Below are positions 16,398 to 41,139 of a DNA stretch of 64,000 nt, piece by piece. This DNA is from Mya arenaria (lineage: Eukaryota; Mollusca; Bivalvia; Myida; Myidae): assembly GCF_026914265.1 (NCBI RefSeq), contig NC_069130.1:11949700-12013699 (forward strand), given 5' to 3'. The stretch's first letter is position 1. Every line of letters begins with the position of its first letter. The notes beneath the pieces were generated by a model, which was not told where the DNA came from, ran no database searches, and saw only the letters and a program-made list of their open reading frames with translations. A program made the translations under genes and the position numbers.

Positions 16398-18158
16398 ATG
16401 AACGCAGTTGCTGCGTTATTGTTTGCCGTGTATGCAGTGTTGGCTACTAGCTCAGGTATGTATTTTGCACTAATACTTTAACTCGATATTTGCTCACTGA
16501 TCACATTTAAATGCAGTCATAAATGGATTCATATCAACGTGATCTAGTTTGTGCTTTGTTGATCATTCTAAATGTTGCCTAGTTTACTTTGACCTCAGTT
16601 TCATCTACATATGAATTGCTGTATTTACATTTTTACAATGTGCAAGAATGTTGTTAATCAAAAAGGCTAAACTCGGTTGATAATCGCTGCCACTTATGTC
16701 TTAATATACCCGCATAATACCTTTATTATGCCAATTTACTATAATGTCTTCGGAATTTAAATACAAAATACCGTATGTGACTGATAAAAACAAAGAACAA
16801 AACAAACAATACAAAACAAAAACAGAACAGGACAAAACGATCTATGTGATTCGAGTGTAATACACACAGTACGCGATGTATTATAATGCACTAGTGTTAT
16901 ATGTTTTAACACTGAAGTCGGTTTGCCCTACTTATATAGCGACAAACGTTTAACCGATGAAATGATGATGAATGTATGATGTGGGAAATATTATCGTACG
17001 CTCGTTGCCAATTAATATACACTTTTATGAATCTAAGCTTATATCTTTCCTTAATTCGATTTGACATTAGTTTTGTATTTGTATGCAAATAATGTAAGAT
17101 CATTTATACATTTTACATTGTACACGGTTACGTGTTCGATTTTCATCAAGGATACCTTTTATGACCTTTAAAATTAACCAATACTGGTTTCTAATTTTAA
17201 GCGTGTTCAGATTGATTTATATCAGCTTTCGTCTGTCTTCACATTTGAGCTAGTATAAAAAAAAATTTTTTTGTTTACCACATCAGTTTCGGGAGATGCG
17301 ATTTTATGCGAGGGTTCGAAAGGTTACATCCAGTGTCCTCCTGGCCAGAAGATAGCAGTTTATAACGCTTACTACGGAAGAACACACAATGGAAGTATCT
17401 GTCCCCATGCCGCCACTTCCGACCAGAATTGCCGCGCATCAGGCTCCTTCAACAAAATCAAGAATGCTTGCCACAATGAACAGGTACATGTATATTTGTT
17501 TAAAACCATATCTTTGAAAGTAACCAAAGTGGGCAGTGTGATAGTAGCAAACTCCGGACAGCCAGTTAACTATGAAGATTCATTCTCAAGTAATCTGTCT
17601 GGTGGTCAAAAACCCCGGATAGGCATTTACCTGAAATGAAATATTCTCAATTTTGCTTCTGGTTGTAACTAGCCCCGGGCTGCCATTAACCTGAGACGGA
17701 TCATTTTCAAATACGCATTCAGGTAGTAACTAACTCCGGTTAGGGGCTGCCATATTTACCACCTCAACACGTCCACATTCCCACGCATTCAGAATTTGAT
17801 AAAACTGAATTTTACAAAATCGAACATGGATGTGAGCGATTTAAATTTTGTTCACATCCTGGGATATAAAATTAACAATACAGTTCGCAAAACGTGGGTC
17901 GTCATGACGTTGCACTAAGGTTTTGTTATAGGATAAACGACATAATGTAGTCACAAACTTGTGCGGAGTAAAACAAGATTGACATTTTTAATAAACTGGT
18001 GATAGATTTGTAGTACAACCGTTCAAACATTACATCGTTAATACGTTTGTTTCTATCAACAGCGATGCTACTTGGCGGTAAATAATGGAGTGTATGGAGA
18101 TCCCTGCCGTGGAACGTACAAATACATTGAAGTGAAGTTCTCATGTGTGCAGGCATAA
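16398..18158 (+). CDS. Lectin B: single-domain SUEL-type lectin, three exons
   Basis: Exons are 16398-16455, 17287-17483 and 18063-18158 (TAA). The product is 116 residues: a signal peptide (MNAVAALLFAVYAVLATSS) and one lectin domain with eight cysteines, CEG, YYGRTHNGSIC, NNGVYGDPC and GTYKYIE. N-G-S next to the YGR motif is a possible N-glycosylation site. Exons 2 and 3 match C, E and F almost perfectly, but exon 1 differs at six of 19 residues and the first part of intron 1 is clearly more diverged, so B looks like a mosaic. Exon 3 reads LAVNNG where the others read LAANNG. An open frame from 17271 to 17639 is only read-through of exon 2 into intron 2. B faces C tail to tail. Confidence 0.92.
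16785..16845. repeat. ACAAA/ACAGA-rich simple repeat in intron 1 of B
   Basis: A degenerate run of AAAACAAAACA and ACAGAACA units. The same run is in intron 1 of E (33595-33655) and, inverted, of C (22515-22575) and F (40680-40740). Confidence 0.7.
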
Positions 18159-18240
18159 AACAGCTTGATGATGATATATGTAAACAGTGTGTTGTATCAG
18201 TGAGTCATCATGATATAAACAATGCTTAAACTGATATACC

Positions 18241-18246
18241 AATAAA
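18241..18246 (+). terminator. Poly(A) signal of lectin B
   Basis: AATAAA, 83 bases after the stop; the position is conserved in C, E and F. Confidence 0.65.
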
Positions 18247-21127
18247 AATGTCACTTTGCCTTCTATGAAGACGACGACAGAATTGCCACGAGATATTGAA
18301 AAAAATAATTGGCATTCAACATAACATGTGTTTTCATGTGTATTCTCCTGTTCTGATAATTATCGGGGGCGGGGGGGGGGGGTCTTTTGGCTTTAATTCG
18401 CACCCGCATTCAAGTCAGAGTACTTTCATGGAATCCATCTTCCAACGAAAATGTTAAATTGGTTAGACATGTTCTGTTTATAATTTGAAATAAATGATTC
18501 ACATCAGTCACACATAGTTCTGTTCGTTTAGCCGTACTGTATAGACAGAGATAAACTTAAATGTTTCCATACGAAACAAAAACAATGACTGCAGTAGTAG
18601 TCGACCGAACAGAGAAGAATGCCTTTAAATTTAATAATCCATATCGAAATACAGAGGCACAACTCTATTTTCATACCTTAAAATAGAGATGCACCTCAAA
18701 ATTTCACTTCCCAATTTGCAATCATTACGGCCAATCAAATTCCGTCTTGAAATTTGGATATACAGACGTTTAAATAACTCTGATTAAGGATCCGCAGGGA
18801 GATATCCTAAGTGACAAAATAGTTACACGGACATTTATATGTCCGTGATGCTACTAAGTTATAAAAAGTAACATATTTTTGATAAACAAGGCTCGTGCGC
18901 ATCGCGCGAATCTTCATTTAAAATCAAACAAAAGTTTACTTAATATCTACTGACTAACTTAGAATGTAAACTACATTATGACTGGCCGATGATACGCAGT
19001 CAACGGTTAATCTGGAACTAGTGTGTAACTGTACTCAATTTAATTGAACTTAATACTTGAAAACGTCGGAATATTTGTAAGCTTATTGGAACTATTTCAA
19101 CAACTTTCTAGACTTTTAAGAATTAGATGACAAGGACGAAATATGCCAAACAAAGCACAAACACAAGCAGACAGCGTTGAGACAATAGTATGCCTTTTTA
19201 CGAAGAACATAATATGAGCGCAATAACAGTTTGTCTTCATGAATAGTGATGGAGAATCGATAGGCAATGACTTTGCGTTGAGCTGAGACTCAACACAATG
19301 TCATATTATTATTAAAACGTAGGTATCATGAAAAATCAAGGTGAGTTGACATTATTCTTGTCATAAATAGTACAAAACATGATGCCATGTCATTCAATAT
19401 CGATGAAACTTAAGAAACATAATTACTAATCCAAATATACTCCCCACAGGTTTGATCTAAGAATGTAAACTATTCTTATAAGATCGTCGAGAACTGTTAG
19501 GTTTGGTGCGAACTAAAATGATAGATGTCGTCCAAATTATCTGATAAATTGTACTCATACCTGCAATGGAAGCATGTCAGTTTGGTGCAGACTGTAATAA
19601 TAATATTTGGTGAATCTGGTGAATAATGCGTATGGCAGATAAAGAGTTTGGAATGTTACGAAATGTATTTACATTTTTGCATAATCATTGAATACAAAGT
19701 ATGCAGCAAAAATGTTTAGATGCATTCTTATGATATTTTTCAGCCACAAGCATGGCACACATGCTCTGTTTAAACAGTTTATGAATAATATTGACGACAC
19801 CAAATCAATCCTTTCAGCAGTGAGTATATATTTGAACGAAGGTCATGATTTACTCATTATCGCATATTACAACGTGATGCATTGTAAGCACCGTTCTAAT
19901 TTTAACAGCCCTTACATATATCAAACGCTCAATAAAAGGCCAAACGGTAGATTCGTCGACAATTTTCCTTTGAATAACGTTTTATTCCGATATCTTCGAA
20001 CTCAAAATGGAAGTGTTTGGGTGCTTTCATACAACTCTTAGTAAAAACATCAATTTAGTGAAAAATCCTAAGTTTTAAAGAATGAACAACCGATTTGCTT
20101 CATAAATACAGATGTTTATTGAAACAGTAGCTTTTGATGACTGGTATAGCTTTGCAAGTGAAAATCTGCATCATTGAAAGCGGCATTGACGTTTTCAACT
20201 GCAAAATGACATGATTATAAATAATGACACAATGTAAACTACAGGGACAAGTCCAGAGTTTAAACTTTAACCAATATCTACTTAAAAGGAACAAGGACCA
20301 ACTTGAAGGTTAAACGTATATCAGACAACAGACACAACGCTACATGGCAACCAATGCTACAAATATAATTAATACATTCAAGGGGTATCGCCAGAACTTA
20401 AATCAAAGTAAGAACTCACTTAATTGAATAAACAGACATCCTCCCACTATTACGTAAAATCTTAATCAAAACCTTATACAAAAAGGCTTTATTGAAATCA
20501 GCTTTAATTCGATTGCAATTAAACAAGAATCTCTTGTTAACTACTGAATTCACTTCAAATATTACACTCCCTTTAAACAAAAAATTAATTGTTGATGAAT
20601 TTAGGCGTAATTTCGAAATTAGTTTCACCTATAAGTTAGGAAAAACAACATTTGAATATAATTTTCGATCTAACTACGAAATAAACCTCTGTTCGGTCGA
20701 CTACTACTGCAGTCATTGTTTTTGTTTCGTATGGAAACATTTAAGTTGATCTCTGTCTATACAGTACGGCAAAACAAACGCAACTATGTGTGACTGATGT
20801 GAATCATTTATTTCAAATTATAAACAGAACATGTTTAACCAATTTAACATTTTCGCTGGAAGATGGATTCCATGAAAGTACTCTGACATGTTGCATATTA
20901 AAAGCAAAACAATTAAAAAAAATCTACACATTCACTTATAACAATATCATAGAAATGCATAAATTGAATGCGGGTGAGAATTAAAGCCAAAAGGCACCCC
21001 CCCCCCCCGATAATTATCAGAACAGGAGAATATACATGAAAACACATGTTATGTTGAATGCCAATTATTTTTTTTTAATATCTCGTGGTAATTCTGTCGT
21101 CGTCTTCATAGAAGGCAAAGTGACATT
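18247..21127. repeat. Centre of palindrome P1 between convergent genes B and C
   Basis: The 3' flank of B (18247 to about 18614, with a G-run at 18366) is repeated inverted as the 3' flank of C (about 20690-21127, with a C-run at 20997). Between them, 18615-20689 is unpaired spacer. It matches the left arm of the second palindrome (35510-37448) almost base for base. The part from 20100 to 20450 also matches the far-upstream flank of lectin genes (for example 31430-31740). The junction near 20684-20690 corresponds to a loss of about 1.38 kb relative to P2 (37449-38828). No gene is seen; frames such as 19688-20041 have no recognised features. Confidence 0.75.
18826..18847. repeat. Conserved perfect hairpin downstream of B
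   Basis: CACGGACAT, loop TTAT, ATGTCCGTG: a 9-bp perfect stem. It recurs downstream of E (35719-35740), in the F arm (38598-38618, stem kept though the loop is one base shorter) and downstream of G (near 51367-51388, one stem mismatch). Confidence 0.7.
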
Positions 21128-21133
21128 TTTATT
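21128..21133 (-). terminator. Poly(A) signal of lectin C
   Basis: AATAAA on the minus strand, at the same distance from the stop codon as in B, E and F. Confidence 0.65.
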
Positions 21134-21215
21134 GGTATATCAGTTTAAGCATTGTTTATATCATGATGACTCACTGATACAACACATTGTTTACATATAT
21201 CAACATGAAGCTGTT

Positions 21216-22976
21216 TTATGCCTGCACACATGAGAACTTCACTTCAATGTATTTGTACGTTCCACGGCAGGGATCTCCATACACTCCATTATTTGCCGCC
21301 AAGTAGCATCGCTGTTGATAGAAACAAACGTATTAACGATGTAATGTTTGAAAGGTTGTACTACAAATCTATCACCAGTTTATTAAAAATGTCAATCTTG
21401 TTTTACTTCGCACAAGTTTGTGACTACATTATGTCGTTTATCATATAACAAAACCTTAGTGCAACGTCATGACGACCCACGTTTTGCGAACTGTATTGTT
21501 AATTTTATATCCCAGGATGTGAACAAAATTTAAATCGCTCACATCCATGTTCGATTTTGTAAAATTCAGTTTTATCAAATTCTGAATGCGTGGGAATGTG
21601 GACGTGTTGAGGTGGTAAATATGGCAGCCCCTAACCGGAGTGTATTTGAGAATGATCCGTCTCAGGTTAATGGCAGCCCGGGGCTAGTTACAACAAGAAG
21701 CAAAATTGAGAATATTTCATTTCAGGTAAATATCCGGGGTTTTTGACCACCAGACAGCTTACTTGAGAATGAATCTTCATAGTTAACTGGCTGTCCGGAG
21801 TTTGCTACTATCACACTGCCCACTTTTGGTTACTTTCAAAGATATGGTTTTAAACAAATATACATGTACCTGTTCATTGTGGCAAGCATTCTTGATTTTG
21901 TTGAAGGAGCCAGATGCGCGGCAATTCTGGTCGGAAGTGGCGGCATGGGGACAGATACTTCCATTGTGTGTTCTTCCGTAGTAAGCGTTATAAACTGCTA
22001 TCTTCTGGCCAGGAGGACACTGGATGTAACCTTTCGAACCCTCGCATAAAATCGCATCTCCCGAAACTGATGTAGTAAACAAAAAAATATTAGGTTTTTT
22101 TATTTATACTAGCTCAAATGTGAAGACAGACGAAAGCTGATATAAATCAATCTGAACACGCTTAAAATTAGAAACCAGTATTGGTTAATTTTAAAGGTCA
22201 TAAAAGGTATCCCTGATGAAAATCGAACACGTAACCGTGTACAATGTAAAATGTATAAAGGATCTTACATGATTTGCATACAAATATAAAACTAATGTCA
22301 AATCGATTTAAGGAAAGATATAAGCTTAGATTCATAAAAGTGTATATTAAATGGCAAGGAGCGTACGATAATATTTCCCTCATCATACATTCATCATCAT
22401 TTAATCGGTTAAACGTTTGTCGCTATATAAGTAGGGCAAACCGACGTCAGTGTTAAAACATATAACACTAGTGCATTATAATACATCGCGTATTGTGTGT
22501 ATTACACTCGAAACATAGATCGTTCTGTCCTGTTCTGTTCTGTTTTTGTTTTGTCTTGTTATGTTTTGTTCTGTGTTTTTATCAGTCACATACGGTATTT
22601 TGTATTTTAATCTCGAACACATTATAGTAAACTTGCATAATAAAGGTGTCATGCAGATATATATAGACAAAAGTGGCATCGATTTTAACTCGAGTTTAGC
22701 CTTTTTGATTAATAACATACTTGCACTTTGCAAAAAAATGTAAATACAGCAATTCGTATTCACATAAAACTGAGGTCAAAGTAAACTAGGCAACACTAAG
22801 AATGATTAATAAAGCATTAGATCACGTTAAAATGAATGCATAATTTATTACTGCGTTTAAGTGTGATCAATATGCAAATTAAATATCAAATAAAATTTAT
22901 TTATGCGTTAAAACATACCTGAGCTCACAGCCAGAACTGCACACACGGCAAACAGAAATACAGCAACTGTGTACAT
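21216..22976 (-). CDS. Lectin C: single-domain SUEL-type lectin, three exons
   Basis: Minus-strand exons are 22976-22919, 22066-21870 and 21311-21216 (TAA). The 116-residue product has signal peptide MYTVAVFLFAVCAVLAVSS and a mature domain with eight cysteines, CEGSKGYIQCPPGQK, YYGRTHNGSICPH, and AANNGVYGDPC with GTYKYIE. It shares HAATSDQNC with B, against HAVTSDQNC in E and F. Its promoter block, exon 1 and intron 1 match E and F better than B. It forms a convergent pair with B (about 3 kb apart) and a divergent pair with D. Frames on the other strand at 21218-21448 and 21864-22049 are antisense shadows of exons 3 and 2. Confidence 0.92.
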
Positions 22977-23053
22977 TTTTAAACGTTTTTTTAAAATGTT
23001 TTTCTCTACTTGAAATCGTCTTGTGTTGTTTGGATTAGTTGAAAGCCTCCTTA

Positions 23054-23061
23054 TATTTATA
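23054..23061 (-). promoter_or_regulatory. TATA box of lectin gene C
   Basis: TATAAATA on the minus strand, 78 bases upstream of the start codon, within the shared promoter block. Confidence 0.75.
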
Positions 23062-25188
23062 GTGACAAACCCGGACACTTCTGCGTTAGTGTTTATTTGT
23101 ATGCTTTAAACATTTCTAAGAAGGAACTTAATACATGTGTTATCTTACCGCAAATGTTAAAGAGACTCATTCACGTTGTACAGGCTCTGATATTGTGAAA
23201 ACATTCCTTTTGTGTGTAATGTGAAATAGTCAATGGTAATTTGTCATTGGAAGTTTAAATTAAGAAAGACCATTCGTACTTACTAGAAACAGCGTATGCA
23301 CATTCTTCTTTATCTCCGAAATAATACATGTTTAGCAGTTTGATAGTCGACTGATATGAAGACAAATGTTTCAAACGTGTGTTCAATTAAGTATTTGTTG
23401 CTGATTACTTTTCGAATACATTTATGTAGACACATTTTGTAAACGTCACCGCCAGTATTATTATAATTTGTGAGCGAGTTTCTTTAACATCGCTATATGT
23501 AAACAACGTATTGCTTGATTTCAAGCGGATCTTTCTGCTCGCTTTACTTAGTAATATAGCACCATGCAAAACATGTCCTAGTTTATTTGACAAACTGAAT
23601 CTGTTTAATTTGTGGTAAGGCTTTTTTTAAATCAGATGTTCGACGATATTATCTGTTACAGCAAATAAAACCAAAAACTTCTGAAGTATAAATTCAATGT
23701 TTAATGCCTTAAAATACTGTCTTAAGTGCAGTTGATTTAAACAGAATATTCAATAGAAGTAGGTTAACACCGCGTGTTTGGTATAAAAAGTACATACCGT
23801 ATAATTGTATCAGGCAAAACTAATTAAGGTGTTTGTTTCCGAAATTACTGTGTACACAACATATAGGTTAGGTAGTTCGGAGTTTATTTAATTGTGTTAT
23901 AATTGTTAATTAGTTAGGTTGTCTCAATATCATATTTCACTTCAAAACACAACGAATTGGTCTTGATAAACGCGAACTATGGCGTCTTATAAATACATAT
24001 TGAGGCGTCTTTAATAAGCACGAGTCTAGCGAAAAGTTATAGTTCATAGGATAAAACAAACCATGATTGATGGCAATATCTTATTCTGGTCAGGATAGGT
24101 CGGGAAACGGTAATGACAACATATGTCAGATGGCAAAAACAACTTAAGGGTCGAGGTAGGTCGGAAAACGGTCAGAATAAAACATGTAAGATGTCAATAA
24201 AAAACCCATACGGGTCGTATTAGGTCGGTAAACGGCTAAAACACAAAGTTCATAGGGCAATGACTATAATTATGGTCTTTTTAAATTGGGAAGCCTGAAA
24301 CAAACATTAAATGTTGTTTTCCCTAACCCCTAGGTGAAATCAATTTCGATATTACGCCTTAATTCATAAACTAGCATTTTTGGTTTACAGGGATGATAAT
24401 ACTTAAAGCGAATTCAGTAATAAGAGTTTCTTATTTAATTGCAATAAAATGAAATCTGAATACGATGAAGCCTAATTTTTAATGTTGCAGTTTTGTATAA
24501 AGAAATACGTTAAGGTATGAGGACGCCTGCTCAATTAGTAAAGTGGGTTCTTACTTTGATTGCACTTCTCAGGATACCCCATAATCTGTTTATTATATTG
24601 TTAGTATTTGTTGTCATGTGACATTGTGTTTGTTGATTGATATATGCTTGGCCTTGATTTTTGTTACTTTCAAGTGAATCTTGGTTCAATTTCTAATTAC
24701 TGGGCTTGTCCCTGTAGTTTCAATTGTGTAATTATGTGTATTCATGTCATTTCGCAGTTTAACTCGTCAATGTCACTGTCGCCTTCTAAGATGCAGATTT
24801 CACCTGCAAAGTAAATCAGGCATAACAGCTACTTTATTTAGGTTTCAATATACAGCTGTAATCATGAAGCAAAGTAATTATATTCACAGTTAAACTAAAT
24901 TAAGACACTTAACCACACATTCTCCAAATTATTCGTGCAAATGATTACGTTTAAAGGTAAATCAGTCGAGATTTAATATACTTTCGTTAAAAATCAGTAC
25001 ATGTTTACTACATTGATGTTTGTAATTTAGAAATTTCATTAAGTGTCCAAATACTTGCAAATAAAGTTCGTAGATACCGGAATACAAAATTTAATTAAGA
25101 AAATTTGTCGACGAAACTAACGTTTGAGATTGTTCACAGCATTTCAAATATCAATAGCCGTTTAAAAAGGAAAGGTTTAAATAATGCA
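23062..25188 (-). promoter_or_regulatory. Upstream flank of lectin C
   Basis: No gene. It is nearly identical to 41225-43348 upstream of F. The degenerate upstream tandem repeat lies at 24090-24265. Identity with the F flank stops abruptly at 25188 (F side 43348) after AATAATGCATCA, which is a rearrangement breakpoint. Confidence 0.6.
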
Positions 25189-26501
25189 TCACGTTGTAAT
25201 ATGCGGTAATGAGTAAGTCATGCACAAACGTAAAACTCAAAAAGGAAGAACATCTGGTGATTCATGTATCATGAAATCGTTGCAATTTTATATACGTTTT
25301 TATGAAATTAGTTTCACGACTTACCTTAACTCGTTTCATCTTGAATAAAATTGCAAATCATGAACGTTCCAATATACATTTCACATGATACAATGGAAAA
25401 CGGCTAATACTGATTTTAAATTGCGCACATATAAACTTAAAGGTAGTACATTGTATTCAGTGTTCTAGCTATAAACGATACAAAAAAAAAACATATCATC
25501 GATGAAAAACTGCCAGGAATGGCATTTTATTATATGGGTATAGCAGATATACGAATCATCAATACATATACATTCACAGTTGAACACCGTTAATTCGAAA
25601 TCGTAGGGACCCAACAAATGACTTTGGAATAGCGGTGTTTCGGATAAACAGGTTTCCGCAAATGACAGCGTTCGCGAATTATAGCTGACGTGAAATACTT
25701 AGTCGTGAAGATTGCAATGTCGGTTACATGTTACCAATACGATACACTCGGTTTGAGTTATCTTTTGTATACAAAAATATTTGTTGATTTAGTGTTCAAT
25801 AATTGACTAATAATTCGTTATTACACTTCTTTATTAAAACAACATAAAACATTTAAAACAAAATGACAGCACATGTATGCATTCGGTAGCGGGTCGAGTG
25901 AGCAATGCGGTGATCGAATCAGATGAGCTAGATATTTTCGAATGATATTCAGAATGTGTTAACCAGCAATTATATACACACTACATCACCTAAATGAATA
26001 GCTAATTTTCTGACATCGATGTTCATAACAAACGCGTGCTCAATGTCATTCTTTAACAAGCGCTAATTGTGCTCCATTGTCACATCAAGCCGATGCCCGA
26101 GTGCATTCGCATTATGGTGTGAAAAAACTTCGAAATAAGAACTAATAAATAGGTGTGAAAAACCAAATCGGGACCGTAATATTTATTTCGTTATAGCGAC
26201 TATTTCGTTATAGCGATTTCGGAAAGACCAAATAATTAGTTAAAGAAAGCAGGAGTAAAATCGGGACCGAAAAATAATTTCGAAATAGCGAAAATTTCGG
26301 ATAAACGGTGTTCGGAATAGCGGTGTTCAACTGTAGTGTGTACTGGTCTTGTTGTAAGGGTTACGGGTTTGATTGTCATCAGTGATACTTTTTATATCCT
26401 CTCAAACATACACCGATACTGGTTTCTACCATGGTAGCAAAATCGAGAGCAATGTCTTTTTAGATAAACTAAACTAAACTGATATCTGTTTACCACACCA
26501 G
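25189..26501 (+). other. Remnant of intron 1 of lectin D, with MITE
   Basis: From about 25240 the sequence (ACATCTGGTGATTCATGTATC and on) resembles intron 1 of genes A, B and E. So D keeps the 3' part of its first intron, while exon 1 and the promoter are missing left of the breakpoint at 25188. No alternative signal-peptide exon was found between 22977 and 26501 on the plus strand. Confidence 0.55.
25577..26333. mobile_element. 757-bp pogo-like MITE in the intron of lectin D
   Basis: CAGTTGAACACCG at 25577 is matched inverted by CGGTGTTCAACTG ending at 26333, followed by TA. Repeated subterminal motifs (AATAGCGGTGTT, TTTCGGATAAAC) lie near both ends. There is no transposase. The right part is also present in gene G (48753-49078), where the left part is replaced by the 43.3-48.75 kb block. 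An inverted fragment lies at about 30070-30150. Confidence 0.75.
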
Positions 26502-27265
26502 TGTCGGGAGATGCTATTTACTGCGAAGAATCGACAGGTCACATCCGGTGTCCCGCTGGCCAGAAGAACGCAGTTTATAATGCTTATTACGGAAGGACAC
26601 ATAACGGAACAATCTGTCCCCATTCCCTCACCTCCAACCAGACATGCCACGCAACTGGCTCCCTCGACAAGATCCAGAGTGCTTGCCAGAATCAACAGGT
26701 ACATTAGTTCAAACCGTATCGATTTTAACTCAGTGTGAACCGCAGTTAGCAGTTAAGATTAGACGTATCGCTCTCAAGTGTACCATTTGAACGTAACTAA
26801 AGTGCGCGGTCTTGTAGTATACAAAATCCGGACCGCAATTCAACTGAGACAAATCATTCTCTAATGCGCAGTCATATAATAACTAACTCGGTGAGGGGCT
26901 GTCATATTTACCACTTGAACACTCACACCTTCCGACGCATTTAGATTTCGATAACACTGAATTTTCTACAACAGAAGATCGAACTGACTGAGTACAGCTC
27001 GCAGTACATGAGTCTGCGTGACGTTGCACTTTCCTTTGTCATTGGATGAAAATCATAATTTAATTTAACTTCTTTTCTGGGTAAAACAAGGTTGACTTCT
27101 TGTGCATTCTTGTGATATATGTGTTGTACAATCTCTTTTCAAATATATCATTAAAATGTTTTTTTATATCAACAGCAATGTTACTTGGCGGCAAACTATG
27201 CAGTGTACGGAGATCCCTGCAGAGGAACGTTCAAATACATTGAAGTGAAGTTTGTTTGTCTGTAG
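26502..27265 (+). CDS. Lectin D: exons 2-3 of a SUEL-type lectin, exon 1 not found
   Basis: Exons are 26502-26698 and 27176-27265 (TAG), both splice-compatible; 95 codons encode the whole lectin domain with eight cysteines, YYGRTHNGTICPH, NYAVYGDPC and GTFKYIE. It lacks a signal-peptide exon, so it cannot be secreted as it stands unless a distant exon is used. Exon 3 ends at CL instead of CVQA. It has two N-glycosylation sequons (NGT and NQT). Compared with G it has changes at otherwise conserved positions (CEE for CEG, KNAVYN for KIAVYN), which suggests relaxed constraint. D is probably a truncated, possibly non-functional copy of a second lectin subtype. Confidence 0.72.
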
Positions 27266-27345
27266 GCATAAAACAGCCGGTCGATAAAATTTGTAAAACA
27301 TGTGTTGTTTCAATGAGTCATCACGATATAAATAATGCTTAAACT

Positions 27346-27383
27346 AATAAACCAATGAGAAATGTCACTTTGCATTCAATAAA
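27346..27383 (+). terminator. Poly(A) signals of lectin D
   Basis: AATAAA at 27346-27351 and again at 27378-27383, 81 and 113 bases after the stop. Confidence 0.55.
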
Positions 27384-29185: not shown

Positions 29186-29279
29186 TGATTTAGTAAGTAG
29201 TTAAAGGTTCATCACCCAAAATCTATATTTGTTTTACATGTGATGTATAGAATTGAATAACACTTTAATTGAACATTGC

Positions 29280-30160: not shown

Positions 30161-30324
30161 GCCTTAGTTTCGCCATATGTATTGCCCGCTACAGGGTGCT
30201 TCAACGACCTATGTAGAAGTCTAAAACCAGACGAGAGGAACGAAATATGACAACAACGACTCCAGCAGACAGTCAAAAATATTCCTTTTTTTCAAAGAAG
30301 ATAAAATGAGGACAATAACAGTTT

Positions 30325-30567: not shown

Positions 30568-30582
30568 GGACAATAACAGTTT

Positions 30583-31925
30583 GTCGTCATCAATAGGGAT
30601 GAAGAATCATTCCGAAATATGTTTTGTTGACTTCGGGTAAAAGTCGAAATAAGGTCATATAACCATCAAACATAGGTATCATAAAAATCCAAGATGATAA
30701 CAACAGTGTTTACTGTTCTTATAAGATTGATGAAAATTATAAGGTATACTGCAAGCCAAAATAATAGATGTTGTGCAAACTGTACTAATCTGAAATATTA
30801 TAAAGTATACTGATACCTTTGGTGCAATCAGAGCTTATCAGTTTGGTGCAAACTGTTATCATATATTTGGTGAATCCGGTGTATAATGCGTATGCCAGAT
30901 AAAAAGCTTTGACGTTTTTCAAATTAACATTGTGTACAAAGGATACAGTTCAAAATATTTTAATGCAGTCTAATGAGTTGTTTCAACCAACAGCTTGTAA
31001 TATGCTCCGTTTAAACAGTTTGTGAATAAAAGTTAGCATTTCAGCAGTGGGTATATTTCAACGAAGTGCATAAGTTACTCATTACCGCATATCACACCGT
31101 GATGCATTATATAAACCTTTCCTATTTAAACGGCTTAAGTTTTAGAAATGCTGTGAATAAACCCAAACGTTAGGTTCGTCGACAGTTTTCCTTAATTCAC
31201 CTTTTATTCAGGTATCTACCAACTTCATATGGAAGTCTTTGGACACTTTCATACAATTTCTTAGTTACAAACATCAATGTAGTGAAAAACAACAAATATT
31301 TGACGAATATTTTTTTAATCTCGACTGATTTGCTGTTAATTGTATTCATTTGCCTTTATGATTTGGAACATGTGTTGTTTATTTTATTTTGATTGAGTTG
31401 AAATTTAAGTATAACGACTTTGCTTCATGAACACAGCTGTTTATTGAAACCTAAATACAGTAGCCCTTTATTCCTAGTGTAAATCTGCATCTACGAATGC
31501 GATGGTGACATTGACGTTTTCAACTGCGAAATTACATGATTACACATAATAACACAATTGAAACTACAGGGACCAGCCCAGTAGATTACAATTTTACCAA
31601 ATTTCTCTTGAAATAACAAGAATCAAGGCCAAACGTTTATCAATCAACAGGCACATCGCAACATGACAACAAATACTAACAATATAAAAATACATTTTGG
31701 GTATTGCCAGAAGTGAAATCTAAGTAAGAACCCACGCTACTAAATAAGCAGGCGTAATCATACCTCGTCGTATTTCTAAATATAAAACTGCAACATTAAA
31801 AAAATGCTTCATCGTATTCATCGTAATTATGCCTCCTCACCCTTCGAAACGAAGCTTAGCTAATTTTGCAAAATAATACTGTTACCTTTTTGATTTTTAA
31901 AAAAGGCGCAGCAAAACTTGCTGTT
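30583..31925. other. Flank shared with the P1 and P2 spacers
   Basis: No gene. 30583-31430 matches, with more divergence, the spacers at 19225-20100 and 36110-36860. 31430-31780 matches both 20100-20450 and, inverted, the far-upstream flanks of C (24540-24860) and F (42680-42990). This is where the 3' flank of one ancestral tandem unit meets the 5' flank of the next. Confidence 0.55.
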
Positions 31926-33110
31926 TGTTTCAGGCTTCACAAGTTCACGACTCTAGTGATAGTCATTACCCTATGACTTTTGTGCTCTTATCGTTTTCCG
32001 ACCTGCCTCGACCTTTATGTCAATCACTGACATCTGACTTGTTTTATTTCGACCTTCTCCTGACCTATCTGACAACGTTTTTTTATAATCGTTTCTTTCG
32101 TGACCTATCTCGACCGAAATCAGTGTTGTTAAATTCTTTAAACGATATCTTTTTGGTAGATTCGTGCTTCTTAATGACGCTTCAATTTTTATTTATATAA
32201 CGACACAATTCGTGTTTGTCAAGACCAATGTGCGGTTTGAAGCAGACGATGATATTTAGATACAACTGAACTAAACAACAATAATAACACAATCAAATAA
32301 ACTCCGAACTACCTAACCTATATGTTGTGTTAAGGCTAGTTTTGGCTGATACTTATATACGGTACGTACTTTTTATAACAAACACGCGGTATTAAGCTAC
32401 TACGTATGATTTTTCTGTATAAATAAACTGCACTCAACACAGCATTTTAGTGTAATAAACATGTATACTTCAGAAGTATTTTTGGTTTTATCTACAGATA
32501 ATATCGTCGAACAACTAAATTTAAATAAGCCTAACCACAAATTAAATTGATTCAATTTGTCAAATAAAATATGACATGTTTTGCAAGGTGTTATTTTAAT
32601 AAGTAAAGCGAACAGAAAGATCCGCTTGAAATCAAGCAAATTGATGTTAACGTATAGTGATGTTAAAGTGACTCGCTTACAAATTATAAGAATACCGGCA
32701 CTCAAGTTTACAAAAGTTGTCTTAATTAAGTCGATTACATTATTGTATTAGAATACTAAACAGCAACAGACACATACTTAATTTAACAGACGTTTAATCA
32801 AATGAGGCTGCATATCAGTCAAATTTCAAACTGCTAAATATGTATTATTTTGGGAAAAAGAAGAATGCTCGTATGCTTATTATAGTATGTACGAACGGTG
32901 TGTCTGTTATTTAAACTTCATATGACAATTTACCTTTGTTTCAAGGACTTATTTCAGATTACACACAAAAGGAATGTTTTCACAATATCAGAGCCTGTAA
33001 AACGTGAATGAGTCTCTTTAACGTTAGCGGTAGGATAACAAATGTTTATTCTTAAAAGTGTTTTTAAGCATACAAATAAACACTAACGCAGAAGTGTCCG
33101 GGTGTGTCAC
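31926..33110 (+). promoter_or_regulatory. Upstream flank of lectin E
   Basis: No gene. The degenerate upstream tandem repeat is at 31960-32130. The rest is nearly identical, inverted, to the flanks of C and F, including GAGTCTCTTTAACGTTAGCG about 90-110 bp before the TATA box. Confidence 0.5.
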
Positions 33111-33118
33111 TATAAATA
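33111..33118 (+). promoter_or_regulatory. TATA box of lectin gene E
   Basis: TATAAATA, 74 bases before the start codon, in the shared promoter block. Confidence 0.75.
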
Positions 33119-33191
33119 TAAGGAGGCTTTCAACTAATCAAACAACACAAGACGATTTCAAGTAGTAGAAAACATTTAAAAACGTTCAAAA

Positions 33192-34983
33192 ATGTACACA
33201 GTTGCTGTATTTCTGTTTGCCGTATGTGCAGTTCTAGCTGTGAGCTCAGGTATGTTTTAACGCATAAATAAATTTTATTTGATATATAATTTGCTTGTTG
33301 ATCACCTTTAAACGCAGTAATATATTATGCATTCATTTTTAACGTGACCTACTGTATGCTTTTTTAATCATTCTTAGTGTTGCCTAGTTTACTTTGAACT
33401 CAGTTTCATGTGAATACGAATTGCTGTATTTACATTTTTTTTGCAATGTGCAAGTATGTTATTAATCACAAAGGCTAAACTCGAGTTGATAGTCAATGCC
33501 ACCTTCGTCTTAATATATCTGCATGACACCTTTATTATGCAAGTTTACAATAATGTGTTCGAGATTTAAATACAAAATACCGTATGTGACTGATAAAAAC
33601 ACAGAACAAAACATAACAAGACAAAACAAAAACAGAACAGAACAGGACAAAACGATCTATGTTTCGAGTGTAATACACACAATACGCGATGTATTATAAT
33701 GCACTAGTGTTATATGTTTTAACACTGACGTCGGTTTGCCCTACTTATATAGCGACAAACGTTTAACCGATTAAATGATGATGAATGTATGATGAGATAA
33801 ATATTATCGTACGCTCGTTGTCATTTAATATACACTTTTATGAAACTAAGCTTATATCTTTCCTTAAATTGATTTGACATTAGTTTTGTATTTGTATACA
33901 AATCATATAAGATCCTTTATACATTTTACATTGTACACGGTTACGTGTTCGATTTTCATCAGGGATACCTTTTATGACCTTTAAAATTAACCAATACTGG
34001 TTTCTAATTTTAAGCGTGTTCAGATTGATTTATATCAGCTTTCGTCTGTCTTCACATTTGAGCTAGTATAAATAAAAAATAACAAATATTTTTTGTTTAC
34101 CACATCAGTTTCGGGAGATGCGATTTTATGCGAGGGTTCGAAAGGTTACATCCAGTGTCCTCCTGGCCAGAAGATAGCAGTTTATAACGCTTACTACGGA
34201 AGAACACACAATGGAAGTATCTGTCCCCATGCCGTCACTTCCGACCAGAATTGCCGCGCATCTGGCTCCTTCAACAAAATCAAGAATGCTTGCCACAATG
34301 AACAGGTACATGTATATTTGTTTAAAACCAAATCTTTGAAAGCAACCAAAGTGGGCAGTGTGATAGTAGCAAACTCCTGACAGCCAGTTAACTATGACGA
34401 TTTATTCTCAAGTAAGCTGTCTGGTGGTCAAATACTCCGGATAGGCATTTACCTGAAATTAAATATTCTCAATTTTGCTTCTGGTTGTAACTAGCCCCGG
34501 GCTGCCATTAACCTGAGACGGATCATTCTCAAATACGCATTCAGGTAGTAACTAACTCCGGTTAGGGGCTGCCATATTTACCACCTCAACTCGTCCACAT
34601 TCCCACGCATTCAAAATTTGATAAAACTGAATTTTACAAAATCGAACATGGATGTGAGCGATTTAAATTTTGTTCACATCCTATTAAGGATATAAAATTA
34701 ACAATACAGTTCGCAAAACGTGGGTCATCATGACGTTGCACTAAGGTTTTGTTATATGATAAACGACATAATGTAGTCAAAAACTTGTGCGGAGTAAAAC
34801 AAGATTGACTTTTTCATATACTGGTGATAGATTTGTAGTACAACCTTTCAAACATTACATCGTTAATACGTTTGTTTTTATCAACAGCGATGCTACTTGG
34901 CGGCAAACAATGGAGTGTATGGAGATCCCTGCCGTGGAACGTACAAATACATTGAAGTGAAGTTCTCATGTGTGCAGGCATAA
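33192..34983 (+). CDS. Lectin E: single-domain SUEL-type lectin, three exons
   Basis: Exons are 33192-33249, 34109-34305 and 34888-34983 (TAA), 116 residues. The signal peptide MYTVAVFLFAVCAVLAVSS is the same as in C and F. The mature domain has eight cysteines, CEGSKGYIQC, YYGRTHNGSICPH, HAVTSDQNC, AANNGVYGDPC and GTYKYIE; the first asparagine of NNG and the aspartate of DPC are the expected sugar contacts in this family. All splice sites and motifs are intact, so it should be functional. E corresponds to B in the duplicated segment and is convergent with F. Confidence 0.92.
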
Positions 34984-35065
34984 AACAGCTTGATGATGAT
35001 ATATGTAAACAATGTGTTGTATCAGTGAGTCATCATGATATAAACAATGCTTAAACTGATATACC

Positions 35066-35071
35066 AATAAA
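35066..35071 (+). terminator. Poly(A) signal of lectin E
   Basis: AATAAA, 83 bases after the stop codon, as in B. Confidence 0.65.
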
Positions 35072-38000
35072 AATGTCACTTTGCCTTCTATGAAGACGAC
35101 GACAGAATTACCACGAGATATTAAAATAATAATTGGCATTCAACATAACATGTGTTTTCATGTATATTCTCCTGTTCTGATAATTATCGGGGGGGGGGGG
35201 TCTTTTGGCTTTAATTCGCACCCGCATTCAATTTATGCATTTCTATGATATTGTTATAAGTGAATGTGTAGATTTTTTTTAATTGTTTTCCTTTTATATG
35301 CAACATGTCAGAGTACTTCATGGAATCCATCTTCCAACGAAAATGTTAAATTGGTTAAACATGTTCTGTTTATAATTTGAAATAAATGATTCACATCAGT
35401 CACACATAGTTGTGTTCGTTTTGTCATACTGTATAGACAGAGATAAACTTAAATGTTTCCATACGAAACAAAAAACAATGACTGCAGTAGCAGTCGACCG
35501 AACAGAGAGGAATGCCTTTAAATTTAATGTTCCATATCGAAATACAGAGGCACAACTCTATTTTCATACTTTAAAATAGAGATGCAACTCAAAATTTCAC
35601 TTCCCAATTTGCAATCATTACGGCCAATCAAATTCCGTCTTGAAATTTGGATATACGGACGTTTAAATAACTCTGATTAAGGATCCGCAGGGAGATATCC
35701 TAAGTGACAAAATAGTTACACGGACATTTATATGTCCGTGATGCTACTAAGTTATAAAAAGTAACATATTTTTGATAAACAAGGCAGGCTGGCTCGTGCG
35801 CATCGAGCGAACCTTCATTTAAAATCAAACAAAAGTTTACTTATTATCTACTGACTGACTTAGAATGTAAACTACATTATGACTGGCCGATGATACGCAG
35901 TCAACGCTTAATCTGGAACTAGTGTAACTGTACTTAATTTATTTGAACGTAATACTTGAAAACGTCGGAATATTTGTAAGCTTATTGGAACTATTTTAAC
36001 AACTTTCTAGACTTTTAAGAACTAGATGACAAGAAAGAAATATGCCAAACAAAGACACAAGCAGACAGCGTTGAGACAATAGTATGCCTTTTTACGAAGA
36101 ACATAATATGAGCGCAATAACAGTTTGTCTTCATGAATAGATATGGAGAATCGACAGGCAATGACTTCGTGTTGAGCTGAGACTCAAAACAATGTCATAT
36201 TATTATTAATACGTAGGTATCTTGAAAAATCAAGGTGATACTAATAGCATGGCATTATTCTTGTCATAAATAGTACAAAACATGATGCCATGTCATTCAA
36301 TATCGATGAAACTTAAGAAACATAATTACTAATCCAAATATACTCCCCACAGGTTTGATCTAAGAATGTAAACTATTCTTATAAGATCGTCGAGAACTGT
36401 TAGGTTTGGTGCGAACTAAAATGATAGATGTCGTCCAAATTGTACTTATCTGATAAATTCAAACTGTACTCATACCTGCAATGGAAGCATGTCAGTTTGG
36501 TGCAGACTGTAATAATAATATTTGGTGAATATGGTGAATAATGCGTATGCCAGATAAAGAGTTTGGAATGTTACGAAATGTATTTACATTTTTGCATAAT
36601 CATTGAATACAAAGTATGCAGCAAAAATGTTTAGATGCATTCTTATGATATTTTTCAGCCACAAGCATGGCACACATGCTCTGTTTAAACAGTTTATGAA
36701 AAATATTGACGACACCAAATCAATCCTTTCAGCAGTTAGTATATATTTGAACGAAGGTCATGATTTACTCATTATCGCATATTACAACGTGATGCATTGT
36801 AAGCACCGTTCTAATTTTAACAGCCCTTACATATATCAAAAGAATGAACAACCGATTTGCTTCATAAATACAGATGTTTATTGAAACAGTAGCTTTTGAT
36901 GACTGGTATAGCTTTGCAAGTGAAAATCTGCATCATTGAAAGCGACATTGACGTTTTCAACTGCAAAATGACATGATTATAAATAATGACACAATGTAAA
37001 TTACAGGGACAAGTCCAGTAGTTTAAACTTTAACCAATATCTACTTAAAAGGAACAAGGACCAACTTGAAGGTTAAACGTATATCAGACACCAGACACAA
37101 CGCTACATGGCAACAAATGCTACAAATATAATTAATACATTCAGGGGTATCACCAGAAGTTAAATCAAAGTAAGAACTCACTTAATTGAATAAACAGACA
37201 TCCTCCCACTATTACGTAAAGTCTTAATCAAAACCTTATACAAAAAGGCTTTATTGAAATCAGCTTTAATTCGATTGCAATTAAACAAGAATCTCTTGTT
37301 AACTACTGAATTCACTTCAAATATTACACTCCCTTTAAACAAAAAATTGATTGTTGATGAATTTAGGCGTAATTTCGAAATAAGTTTCACCTATAAGTTA
37401 GTAAAAACAACATTTGAATATAATTTTCGATCTAACTACGAAATAAACCGAAAATAATGAAAAAGATGCAAGTATATTTCAATGGTCGCGGTCACATTCC
37501 GCCGCCCTTCGGTCGTGCAAACCACCTCATTATAAGTCAAATGGAACTGTCAACATCCGGGGCCGAGTGACATGCAGTTCCAAAAGTCATGAAGTATCTC
37601 GCAACGGTCCAGACAACCAGATCAAATACCGCGGGGAATGGTAGTATGGCCAACGAGAATATAAAGGGAGTTAACTGCTCATATCGGTCCTCTAAAGATA
37701 AAGCTTCCCTTGAAGTAGCATTTGTGTTTCTAGATGCGCATATCATTTATATGCTTAAGATGTGTCAAACCTGATCACTCCTAATTTTTGTGAACTTTGA
37801 AATTCAAACAAAAACATACAAGTGAATTCCTTGCAATCAAATCTTTAAATTCCGATTTGTCAATTCCCCGCAATTGTATGTATTTGTAATATGCTTTACA
37901 AAGATATTTATTTATTTTTCAACCACTTTTGCCGAGAAATTGCACAATAATAGTCATGTAGGAAATCAATATTAGTTTCCGACCAATCTCGAGGCTAATG

Positions 38001-39269
38001 TTTTCATTCGAATCTGACATATTTTATTCGGATCCGCGACCATTGAAATATACTTGCATCTTTTTCATTATTTTCGGTTTATTTCGTAGTTAGATCGAAA
38101 ATTATATTCTTTTGATTTTTCAAGATACCTACGTATTAAAATAATATGACATTGTTTTGAGTCTCAGCTCAACGCGAAGTCATTGCCTATCGATTCTCCA
38201 TCACTATTCATAAAGACAAACTGTTATTGCGCTCATATTATGTTCTTCGTAAAAAGGCATACTATTGTCTCAACGCTGTCTGCTTGTGTCTTTGTTTGGC
38301 ATATTTCTTTCTTGTCATCTAATTCTTAAACGTCTAGAAAGTTGTTAAAATAGTTCCAATAAGCTTACAAATATTCCGACGTTTTCAAGTATTAAGTTCA
38401 ATTGAACTGAGTACAGTTACACACTAGTTCCAGATTAAGCGTTGACTGCGTATCATCGGCCAGTCATAATTTAGTTTACATTCTAAGTCAGTCAGTAGAT
38501 ATTAAGTAAACTTTTGTTTGATTTTAAATGAAGATTCGCGCGATGCGCACGAGCCTTGTTTATCAAAAATATGTTACTTTTTATAACTTAGTAGCATCAC
38601 GGACATATAATGTCCGTGTAACTATTTTGTCACTTAGGATATCTCCCTGTGGATCCTTAATCAGAAATATTTAAACGTCCGTATATCCAAATTTTAAGAC
38701 GGAATTTGATTGGCCGTAATGATTGCAAATTGGGAAGTGAAATTTTGAGGTGCATCTCTATTTTAAGGTATGAAAATAGAGTTGTGCCTCTGTATTTCGA
38801 TATGGAACATTAAATTTAAAGGCATTCCCCTCTGTTCGGTCGACTACTACTGCAGTCATTGTTTTTGTTTCGTATGGAAACATTTAAGTTTATCTCTGTC
38901 TATACAGTACGGCAAAACGAACGCAACTATGTGTGACTGATGTGAATCATTTATTTCAAATTATAAACAGAACATGTTTAACCAATTTAACATTTTCGCT
39001 GGAAGATGGATTCCATGAAAGTACTCTGACATGATGCATATTAAAAGCAAAACAATTAAAAAAAAATCTACACATTAACTTATAACAATATCATAGAAAT
39101 GCATAAATTGAATGCGGGTGCGAATTAAAGCCAAAAGACACCCCCCCCCCCCGAGAAATATCAGAACAGGAGAATATACATGAAAACACATGTTATGTTG
39201 AATGCCAATTATTTTTTTAATATCTCGTAGTAATTCTGTCGTCGTCTTCATAGAAGGCAAAGTGACATT
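35072..39269. repeat. Centre of palindrome P2 between convergent genes E and F
   Basis: The left arm (35072 to about 36245) is inverted in the right arm (about 38115-39269), including G- and C-runs at about 35190 and 39141. An inner arm, 37416-37492, has an exact 77-bp inverted partner at 38033-38109. The loop is about 540 bp. The left arm has about 1.17 kb (36246-37415) that the right arm has lost. No gene; the frames at 36603-36884, 37254-37457 and 37589-37774 have no recognised features. Confidence 0.8.
37493..38032. repeat. Palindrome loop with a dispersed repeat
   Basis: The loop start (CAATGGTCGCGGTCACATTC, spanning the arm edge) and a later stretch (GGCCAACGAGAATATAAAGG) recur in diverged form downstream of G at about 52225-52450. 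This DNA is therefore an old part of the lectin unit or an old repeat. No coding content is recognised. Confidence 0.5.
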
Positions 39270-39275
39270 TTTATT
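39270..39275 (-). terminator. Poly(A) signal of lectin F
   Basis: AATAAA on the minus strand, at the conserved distance from the stop. Confidence 0.65.
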
Positions 39276-39357
39276 GGTATATCAGTTTAAGCATTGTTTA
39301 TATCATGATGACTCACTGATACAACACATTGTTTACATATATCATCATCAAGCTGTT

Positions 39358-41139
39358 TTATGCCTGCACACATGAGAACTTCACTTCAATGTATTTGTAC
39401 GTTCCACGGCATGGATCTCCATACACTCCATTATTTGCCGCCAAGTAGCATCGCTGTTGATAGAAACAAAGGTATTAACGATGTAATGTTTGAAAGGTTG
39501 TACAACAAATCTATCACCAGTATATGAAAAAGTCAATCTTATTTTACTCCGCACAAGTTTGTGACTACATTATGTCGTTTATCATATAACAAAACCTTAG
39601 TGCAACGTCATGATGACCCACGTTTTGCGAACTGTATTGTTAATTTTATATCCTTAATAGAATGTGAACAAAATTTAAATCGCTCACATCCATGTTCGAT
39701 TTTGTAAAATTCAGTTTTATCAAATTCTGAATGCGTGGGAATGTGGACGTGTTGAGGTGGTAAATATGGCAGCCCATAACCGGAGTTAGTTATTACCTGA
39801 ATGCGTATTTGAGAATGATCTCAGGTTAATGGCAGCCCGGGGCTAGTTACAAACAGAAGCAAATTTGAGAATATTTCATTTCAGGTAAATGCCTATCCGG
39901 GGTTTTTGACCACCAGACAGCTTACTTGAGAATGAATCGTCATAGTTAACTGGCTGTCCGGAGTTTGCTACTATCACACTGCCCACTTTGGTTACTTTCA
40001 AAGATATGGTTTTAAACAAATATACATGTACCTGTTTATTGTGGCAAGCATTCTTGATTTTGTTGAAGGAGCCAGATGCGCGGCAATTCTGGTCGGAAGT
40101 GACGGCATGGGGACAGATACTTCCATTGTGTGTTCTTCCGTAGTAAGCGTTATAAACTGCTATCTTCTGGCCAGGAGGACACTGGATGTAACCTTTCGAA
40201 CCCTCGCATAAAATCGCATCTCCCGAAACTGATGTAGTAAACAAAAAGTATGAGGTTTTTTATTTATACTAGCTCAAATGTGAAGACAGACGAAAGCTGA
40301 TATAAATCAATCTGAACACGCTTAAAATTAGAAACCAGTATTGGTTAATTTTAAAGGTCATAAAAGGTATCCCTGATGAAAATCGAACACTTAACCGTGT
40401 ACAATGTAAAATGTATAAAGGATCTTACATGATTTGCATACAAATATAAAACTAATGTCAAATCGATTTAAGGAAAGATATAAGCTTAGATTCATAAAAG
40501 TGTATATTAAATGGCAAGGAGCGTACGATAATATTTCCCTCATCATACATTCATCATCATTTCATCGGTTAAACGTTTGTCGCTATATAAGTAGGGCAAA
40601 CCGACGTCAGTGTTAAAACATATAACACTAGTGCATTATAATACATCGCGTATTGTGTGTATTACACTCGAAACATAGATCGTTCTGTCCTGTTCTGTTC
40701 TGTTTTTGTTTTGTCTTGTTATGTTTTGTTCTGTGTTTTTATCAGTCACATATTACTGTATTTTGTATTTTAATCTCGAACACATTATAGTAAACTTGCA
40801 TAATAAAGGCGTCATGCAGATATATTAAGACAAAAGTGGCATCGATTATCAACTCGAGTTTAGCCTTTTTGATTAATAACATACTTGCACTTTGCAAAAA
40901 AATGTAAATACAGCAATTCGTATTCCCATAAAACTGAGGTCAAAGTAAACTAGGCAACACTAAGAATGATTAATAAAGCATTAGATCACGTTAAAATGAA
41001 TGCATAATATATTACTGCGTTTAAGTGTGATCAATATGCAAATTAAATATCAAATAAAATTTATTTATGCGTTAAACATACCTGAGCTCACAGCCAGAAC
41101 TGCACACACGGCAAACAGAAATACAGCAACTGTGTACAT
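39358..41139 (-). CDS. Lectin F: single-domain SUEL-type lectin, three exons
   Basis: Minus-strand exons are 41139-41082, 40228-40032 and 39453-39358 (TAA), 116 residues. The signal peptide equals that of C and E. The domain has eight cysteines, YYGRTHNGSICPH, HAVTSDQNC (shared with E) and AANNGVYGDPC. CHNKQ replaces CHNEQ at the end of exon 2, the only residue change from E that I see. Open frames on the opposite strand (40026-40211, 40434-40616) are shadows. F is convergent with E and divergent from G. Confidence 0.92.

What the first reader, a model, noticed from the sequence alone, without database searches (positions are those of the whole stretch)
16800..41100. Arm-to-arm homogenisation inside two lectin palindromes
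At several sites B equals C and E equals F, although each palindrome probably arose by copying the other. They are the GCC/GTC codon giving HAATS or HAVTS in exon 2; GAAG/GACG in intron 2; CTGGGATA against CTATTAAGGATA (near 17857, 21515, 34685, 39652); GGGTCGTCATG against GGGTCATCATG; and AATAAACTGG against CATATACTGG before exon 3. Sharing within a palindrome but not between them is the signature of intrachromosomal gene conversion between inverted arms, known from sex-chromosome ampliconic genes but seldom noted for invertebrate immune lectins.
Basis: partly seen in the sequence, partly recalled or inferred. Interest (0 to 1): 0.75.

Follow-up and report, generated by a model that had tools for sequence, protein, structure and literature searches.

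The report
Patchwork lectin genes in mirrored copies
In what is probably a clam genome, copies of a sugar-binding (lectin) gene sit in mirror-image pairs and have swapped DNA with one another; the swapping spans the whole gene family rather than staying inside each pair, so this is a good example of a known process, not a new one.

Summary
The listed differences are real: four rhamnose-binding-type (SUEL) lectin genes lie in two inverted pairs, and at 6-7 sites B=C while E=F. The reading is only partly right. A search of the host genome found seven full-length copies: B, C, E, F, plus H just past the window, and J and K elsewhere on the same scaffold. Outer flanks group C with F, E with H/K/J, and leave B alone, so neither palindrome is simply a copy of the other. 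E is a chimera: H/K/J-like on its left, B/C/F-like on its right, switching at or beside exon 2. That is what an unequal crossover between lectin genes would leave after duplicating the palindrome. Across about 1.5 kb of gene body the seven copies average about 94-99% alike by region, introns included, while flanks of the deepest lineages are about 80% alike; sites in the gene body conflict strongly. So exchange is family-wide. Shared private states support a short patchy exchange between B and C (17.41-17.99 kb). They do not support one between E and F, which mostly share the state also present in H, K and J. Closest known case: palindromic Hsp70 and amylase genes of Drosophila. Haplotype or assembly effects are not excluded.

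The parts
15356..18614 (+). Arm B of palindrome 1 (outer flank, lectin gene core, inner flank)
   Evidence: inverted homology to 20687-24054 and homology to E and F
20687..24054 (-). Arm C of palindrome 1
   Evidence: 97.4% to F arm and flank over 4.5 kb
32131..36233 (+). Arm E of palindrome 2; chimera of an H/K/J-like left part and a B/C/F-like right part
   Evidence: H/K/J-type at 42 of 47 diagnostic sites E 32175-33495 (3 B/C/F-type, 2 neither); B/C/F-type at 27 of 27 sites E 34360-35571
38112..42213 (-). Arm F of palindrome 2
33845..34360 (+). Interval holding the switch in E (putative unequal-crossover point, around exon 2)
   Evidence: last E-H private site (B 17032, which is E 33845 by offset from E 33817) and first B/C/F-type diagnostic site on the right (E 34360)
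16850..18400 (+). Gene core, alike in all seven copies (shown on B)
   Evidence: identity tables; seven full-length hits in the genome search with 16850-18410
17287..17483 (+). B lectin exon 2 (SUEL domain, first part)
   Evidence: open frame, AG/GT borders in all 7 copies; PF02140 E 4.3e-11 on the open frame around it
18063..18158 (+). B lectin exon 3 (SUEL domain, end, and stop codon)
21870..22066 (-). C lectin exon 2
   Evidence: placed by offset from alignment coordinates, intact frame
21216..21311 (-). C lectin exon 3
   Evidence: placed by offset from alignment coordinates, intact frame
34109..34305 (+). E lectin exon 2
   Evidence: placed by offset from alignment coordinates, intact frame
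34888..34983 (+). E lectin exon 3
   Evidence: placed by offset from alignment coordinates, intact frame
40032..40228 (-). F lectin exon 2
   Evidence: placed by offset from alignment coordinates, intact frame
39358..39453 (-). F lectin exon 3
   Evidence: placed by offset from alignment coordinates, intact frame
17413..17994 (+). B side of the patchy B-C exchange
   Evidence: 5 private shared substitutions plus a shared 4-bp deletion and a shared 1-bp indel; clade support 93/98 for 17281-17995
21380..21940 (-). C side of the patchy B-C exchange
18411..29190 (+). Unit 1 of the direct duplication (loop, C, D, spacer), copied as E-right, loop, F, G and the stretch from 62988
   Evidence: blocks 18411-19925/35304-36840 (95.1%), 20077-20687/36839-37449 (98.0%), 20686-25191/38829-43348 (97.4%), 26003-26991/48748-49736 (98.8%), 26991-28198/49779-50996 (97.5%), 28190-29190/62988-64000 (94.0%)
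26487..26704 (+). D, diverged lectin exon 2 region (82% to B), used as control
49232..49449 (+). G, duplicate of D (98-99% in exons and introns), used as control

Best explanation
These are SUEL-type lectin genes in a small cluster that evolves by recombination between copies. (1) Shown by sequence: the gene body (about 1.5 kb, introns included) is much alike in all seven copies while their flanks belong to distinct lineages. (2) Inferred from that: repeated ectopic gene conversion or crossing over confined mostly to the gene body. (3) Inferred: an unequal crossover between a B-type gene and an H/K/J-type gene, at or beside exon 2, duplicated the block loop-C-D-spacer and left E as the chimeric junction, giving palindrome 2 and G. 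(4) Inferred: after that, a short patchy exchange, most simply B to C, gave the shared B=C states. E=F mostly needs no exchange, because E and F carry the state also found in H, K and J. A small F-to-E patch (E=F=C at 17931 and 18285) is possible but not shown.
For: Flank trees: C-F 100/100, E with H/K/J 100/100, B apart in 15356-16180; same grouping with lower support (99/97 and 84/92) in 16181-16800. Identity of B to H/K/J: outer 81%, intron 2 97%, exon 2 99%, while introns of the more distant copies D, G, M, N are only 68.5-73.8% like B, so constraint does not explain the intron. Incompatible site pairs: 145 of 630 in the core, 97 of 6216 in the outer flank; PHI permutation P = 0.002 in the core, 0.075 in the outer flank (both at w = 100). 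E chimera: 42 of 47 sites against 27 of 27. D-G 98-99% in exons and introns matches the C-F flanks (98.2%) as one duplication. BC private sharing P = 2e-5, EF 0.27. Core-mid clade BC 93/98; core-left rejects both BC (p-AU 0.018) and EF (0.031).
Against: Within the core alone a longest-run (GENECONV-like) permutation test is not significant for BC (P = 0.32) or EF (P = 0.69). At two sites inside the B-C tract (17706, 17931) B and C differ, so the tract is patchy. BC core-mid support is 93/98, which treekit does not star. The AU tests were not corrected for their number. Site 17413 is ambiguous, since two outgroups (M, N) share the B=C state and two (D, G) the other; 17990 is three-state and aligned differently in two calls. 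The outer flank also gives one PHI value under 0.05 (0.031 at w = 200). A third donor, or exchange between homologous chromosomes, would look the same as arm-to-arm transfer. E-H identity (94.6% over 3.3 kb) is lower than C-F (97.4% over 4.5 kb), so if one event made both, it may have joined two different haplotypes.
Confidence: 0.66

Rival explanations
1. One reading: one palindrome was copied to make the other, then each palindrome homogenised its own two arms, so B=C and E=F.
For: BC|EF sites cluster in the core (Fisher P = 1e-7). B-C share 5 private states. E, F and C share two derived sites not in B (17931, 18285), which could be a small F-to-E patch. E-F as a clade is not rejected over the whole core (p-AU 0.091), its middle (0.244) or its right part (0.395).
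Against: At 4 of the 5 B-C private sites E and F have the same state as H, K and J. E-F share one private site only (17990). E-F is rejected at the left of the core (p-AU 0.031) and is not the best clade in any of the 7 segments. Outer arms of B and E are not sisters.
Confidence: 0.14
2. Assembly or haplotype effect: two haplotypes of a very heterozygous animal were joined in series at the near-identical gene core, making E an artificial junction, and the J/K locus is a leftover haplotig.
For: The E junction lies inside the most alike stretch, where a false join would fall. The locus at C9:178-235 kb is bracketed by homologues of both flanks of the window cluster (left mostly about 96%, right about 91-94%). 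If the genome is Mya arenaria, that assembly was built with FALCON-Unzip and purge_haplotigs because of high heterozygosity (PMC10663159 passages).
Against: If the J/K locus is the second haplotype, the animal's other haplotype is the window, and units 1 and 2 should both lie on it (inference for a diploid). Units 1 and 2 differ by 1-6% and by a stretch of about 12 kb in unit 2 that holds a LINE. The window holds no N. The B-C signal does not depend on this junction.
Confidence: 0.17
3. Two independent inverted duplications gave B/C and E/F.
For: B=C and E=F at 6-7 core sites.
Against: Flank trees put C with F (100/100) and E with H/K/J (100/100); there are 79 private C-F sites in the outer flank and 0 for BC or EF.
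Confidence: 0.02
4. The core is alike because of purifying selection on the gene, not exchange.
For: Exons are the most alike part (about 98-99%).
Against: Intron 2 is about 96-98% alike among the seven (group averages) but 68.5-73.8% between B and D, G, M, N. Conflicting site patterns in the core also point to recombination.
Confidence: 0.01

Closest known systems
Palindromic Hsp70 pairs (Hsp70Aa/Ab, Hsp70Ba/Bb) of Drosophila
   Same: Two linked pairs of inverted autosomal genes with ectopic conversion (PMC3924832, section 10 read)
   Different: There conversion within each pair is supported by comparison of species. Here only one pair shows a within-pair patch, and exchange reaches every close copy.
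Palindromic amylase genes (Amy-p/Amy-d) of Drosophila
   Same: Inverted paralogues homogenised in the coding sequence while flanks evolve independently (PMC3924832 passages)
   Different: Here introns and about 0.4 kb of 5' sequence are included, and an unequal crossover (inferred) duplicated the whole palindrome.
hsp70 cluster of Stratiomys singularior
   Same: Cluster with an inverted pair, conversion among clustered copies, decay of homogeneity with distance (PMC3071340 passages)
   Different: Shown there with many clones; here one assembly.
Sp185/333 (SpTransformer) immune genes of sea urchin
   Same: Clustered invertebrate immune genes with segmental duplications (PMC5103432 and PMC3091723; search listing with the start of the abstract only; gene conversion seen there only as a term count)
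   Different: Described there as a highly diverse family. Here exons 2 and 3 vary at 4 of 97 residues among the seven copies.
Sex-chromosome ampliconic palindromes
   Same: Inverted arms as substrates for conversion
   Different: Those keep arms above 99% alike (PMC8981503, start of abstract). Here arms average 86-91% and only the gene core is alike.

Membership tests
Palindromic gene pairs under ectopic gene conversion (Hsp70/Amy kind) | Two linked gene copies in inverted orientation | tested here: met
   B/C and E/F
Palindromic gene pairs under ectopic gene conversion (Hsp70/Amy kind) | Gene region homogenised while flanks diverge | tested here: met
   B to H/K/J 81% outer, 97% intron 2, 99% exon 2
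Palindromic gene pairs under ectopic gene conversion (Hsp70/Amy kind) | Copies within a pair closer than expected from their flanks, pair by pair | tested here: inconclusive
   B-C yes over about 0.6 kb; E-F no
Palindromic gene pairs under ectopic gene conversion (Hsp70/Amy kind) | Polymorphisms shared between paralogues within a population | not testable with these tools
   no other individuals held
Sex-chromosome ampliconic palindromes | Arms above 99% alike over their whole length | tested here: not met
   86.5% (B-C) and 91.4% (E-F)
Sex-chromosome ampliconic palindromes | Sex linkage | not testable with these tools
   one unnamed assembly
SUEL / rhamnose-binding lectin family | Significant PF02140 match | tested here: met
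   43.5 bits against a cut-off of 31.4 on the open frame around B exon 2, profile positions 1-51 of 80; the other copies were not scanned
SUEL / rhamnose-binding lectin family | Eight cysteines and the YGR and DPC..TYKY motifs (feature and motif names recalled) | tested here: met
   read by eye from the joined exon 2 and 3 translations of the seven copies
SUEL / rhamnose-binding lectin family | Sugar binding | not testable with these tools
   needs protein

The most novel reading that the evidence does not exclude
The palindromes act as a recombination hub for a lectin cluster: crossovers inside the gene copy or delete whole palindromes, so haplotypes of one animal carry very different numbers of lectin genes (five close copies in one arrangement, two in the other), while conversion keeps the protein almost the same in all of them.
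Probability: 0.3. Interest if true: 0.5.

Novelty: new member of a known kind. Interest (0 to 1): 0.33.

Why it matters
It is a compact natural record of how conversion and unequal crossing over act together on an invertebrate lectin cluster. It also shows that shared sites in four copies can mislead when further copies are left out. If the J/K locus is the other haplotype, it points to strong copy-number variation of these genes between haplotypes.

Tried and rejected
A longest-run permutation test in the core alone was not significant for BC (P = 0.32) or EF (P = 0.69). For the whole alignment it was significant for BC (P = 0.001), where the flank-core contrast drives it, and not for EF (P = 0.21). 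I first took 17706 as shared by C, E and F only; it is C, E, F and H against B, K and J, so it is not used for a C-E-F link. I considered independent inverted duplications (rejected by flank trees) and selection on the core (rejected by introns of D, G, M and N).

I could not settle whether C9:178-235 kb is a haplotig or a segmental duplication. In the 80 kb held there (C9:168000-247999), compared with window coordinates -20000 to 184000 and listing only blocks of 300 bases or more at 88% or more and leaving out the repeat array at 235.0-240.5 kb, homology ends at about 178 kb on one side and about 235 kb on the other. The neighbourhood left of -20000 was not held, so the end at 235 kb may be only the end of what I had; a lectin hit pair at C9:258.7 kb and C9:11.90 Mb hints that it goes on. 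Of three 6-kb queries from further right (capped lists), the first matched C9:178.2-179.6 kb over its first 1.3 kb and none matched below C9:178 kb.

Paper searches: conversion with rhamnose-binding lectin (0 papers); palindrome + conversion + inverted + lectin (3 papers, none on this by title); three of rhamnose-binding lectin, bivalve, tandem, conversion (12 of 74 listed); palindromes beyond sex chromosomes (12 of 73 listed); immune genes (12 of 51 listed). None of the titles shown reports this for the lectin family; that is not proof of absence. Exon 1 / signal peptide was not located.

Full report
What is there. The window is C9:11949700-12013699 of a genome of 1.216 Gb in 18 contigs. Size and contig number fit Mya arenaria (1.22 Gb, 17 scaffolds; passages of PMC10663159), but the species was not tested. 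The genes carry a SUEL / rhamnose-binding lectin domain (PF02140 on the open frame around B exon 2). Exons 2 and 3 are open with AG/GT borders in all seven close copies and vary at 4 of 97 residues. Exon 1 was not found.

The arms. B (15356-18614, +) and C (20687-24054, -) form palindrome 1; E (32131-36233, +) and F (38112-42213, -) form palindrome 2. A search of the whole assembly with the B gene core gave seven full-length matches at 94-100%: B, C, E, F, H (C9:12.018 Mb, + strand, 4-5 kb past the window end) and J and K (C9:184 and 204 kb); the next best match is partial, at 85%. The tool warns that its counts are lower bounds.

The observation. In the four arms, 80 two-against-two sites divide into 7 BC|EF, 72 BE|CF and 1 BF|CE. 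The core holds all 7 BC|EF sites with 3 BE|CF and 1 BF|CE; the flanks hold 69, all BE|CF (Fisher P = 1e-7). One of the seven (17266) is alignment-dependent and drops out with seven copies.

What the further copies change. At 4 of the 5 B-C private sites E and F have the same base as H, K and J. E and F share one private state (17990, a three-state site), B and C five plus a 4-bp deletion and a 1-bp indel. Against a background of 0.32 per pair (mean of the 19 pairs other than BC and KJ), a rough Poisson comparison gives P = 2e-5 for BC and 0.27 for EF. Four more distant copies (D, G, M, N) help to polarise. At 17576 all four have the E=F state, so the B=C state is derived. At the 4-bp deletion M keeps the longer form, G has a similar stretch of the same length, and D and N are gapped, so the deletion is probably derived. 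17413 is ambiguous, because M and N share the B=C state while D and G have the other. 17901 and 17990 are three-state. So B=C is a real shared change, while E=F is mostly the common state.

Flanks. Trees of the outer flank (15356-16180) give C-F 100/100, E with H, K and J 100/100, and B apart; the next segment (16181-16800) gives the same groups with 99/97 and 84/92. The loop, C, D and the flank beyond are 95-99% like the loop, F, G and the flank beyond, so that block was duplicated. The outer arm of B was not.

E is a chimera. At sites where H=K=J differs from B=C=F, E follows H/K/J at 42 of 47 sites on the left (3 follow B/C/F, 2 neither) and B/C/F at 27 of 27 on the right. Two E-H private sites push the left part to E 33845. 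The switch lies between E 33845 and 34360, which contains exon 2. The simplest event is an unequal crossover between lectin genes in direct orientation. A false join in assembly at the same place would look alike.

The core is shared by the whole family. Identity of B to H/K/J is 81% in the outer flank, 95% in the 5' core, 99% in exon 2, 97% in intron 2, 98% in exon 3 and 94% in the 3' core. Towards the 3' edge single pairs fall to about 89-91% (B 18227-18413). Introns of the more distant copies are 68.5-73.8% like B, so constraint cannot explain the introns. Informative sites conflict in 145 of 630 pairs in the core and in 97 of 6216 in the outer flank. The core has a significant PHI result (P = 0.002 at w = 100 and 200, 0.027 at w = 400); the outer flank gives 0.075, 0.031 and 0.080, so a weak signal there is not excluded.

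Where arm-to-arm exchange stands. Within the core, 17281-17995 groups B with C (93/98, not starred by the program) and rejects C-F (p-AU 0.026), while 16850-17280 rejects B-C (0.018) and E-F (0.031); these tests were not corrected for their number. By parsimony this is one B-to-C event: C lost the state that its duplicate F keeps. The tract is patchy (B and C differ at 17706 and 17931), and a longest-run test inside the core alone is not significant (P = 0.32). E-F is the best clade in none of the 7 segments, but is not rejected over the whole core, its middle or its right part (p-AU 0.091, 0.244, 0.395). C=E=F at 17931 and 18285 leaves room for a small F-to-E patch.

The second locus. C9:178-235 kb is bracketed by homologues of the window's left flank (mostly about 96%) and right flank (about 91-94%), inverted, with two close lectin copies instead of five. 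It may be the other haplotype left in the assembly or a segmental duplication; I could not decide. If it is the other haplotype, copy number differs strongly between the haplotypes of one animal.

Comparison and verdict. Conversion in palindromic autosomal gene pairs is known, notably Hsp70 and amylase in Drosophila (PMC3924832: section 10 read, other passages), as is conversion among clustered hsp70 genes of a fly with an inverted pair (PMC3071340 passages). The lectin case is a new member of that kind, with a clearly visible crossover junction. The library searches I ran show no report for this lectin family.

Noticed in passing
C9:178000-235000 (L023-L028), against window coordinates -18400 to 6813 and 52286 to 75264: A second locus with homologues of both flanks of the window cluster, inverted, with two lectin copies (J, K); haplotig or segmental duplication. 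It lacks the stretch that corresponds to 54234-60916, where the window has the LINE.
   Followed up: partly
54766-60534: LINE-like element: a 340-aa open frame without a Pfam match, then endonuclease (PF03372) and reverse transcriptase (PF00078) frames that overlap in different frames.
   Followed up: no
12722-14092, 10263-11953 and 45414-46369: Tandem arrays with units of 36, 41 and 107 bp; the 36-bp array holds open frames of 456 codons on the + strand and 403 on the - strand.
   Followed up: no
window coordinates -19999 to -18381 and -16718 to -15095 (L021): Another inverted pair (96.9%), 72-80% like the outer arms of B, C, E and F.
   Followed up: no
20687 (palindrome 1) against 37450-38829 (palindrome 2): Palindrome 1 lacks about 1.4 kb of arm and loop that palindrome 2 has; part of it (to 38028) is also found beside H at about 75%, so palindrome 1 probably lost it.
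   Followed up: partly
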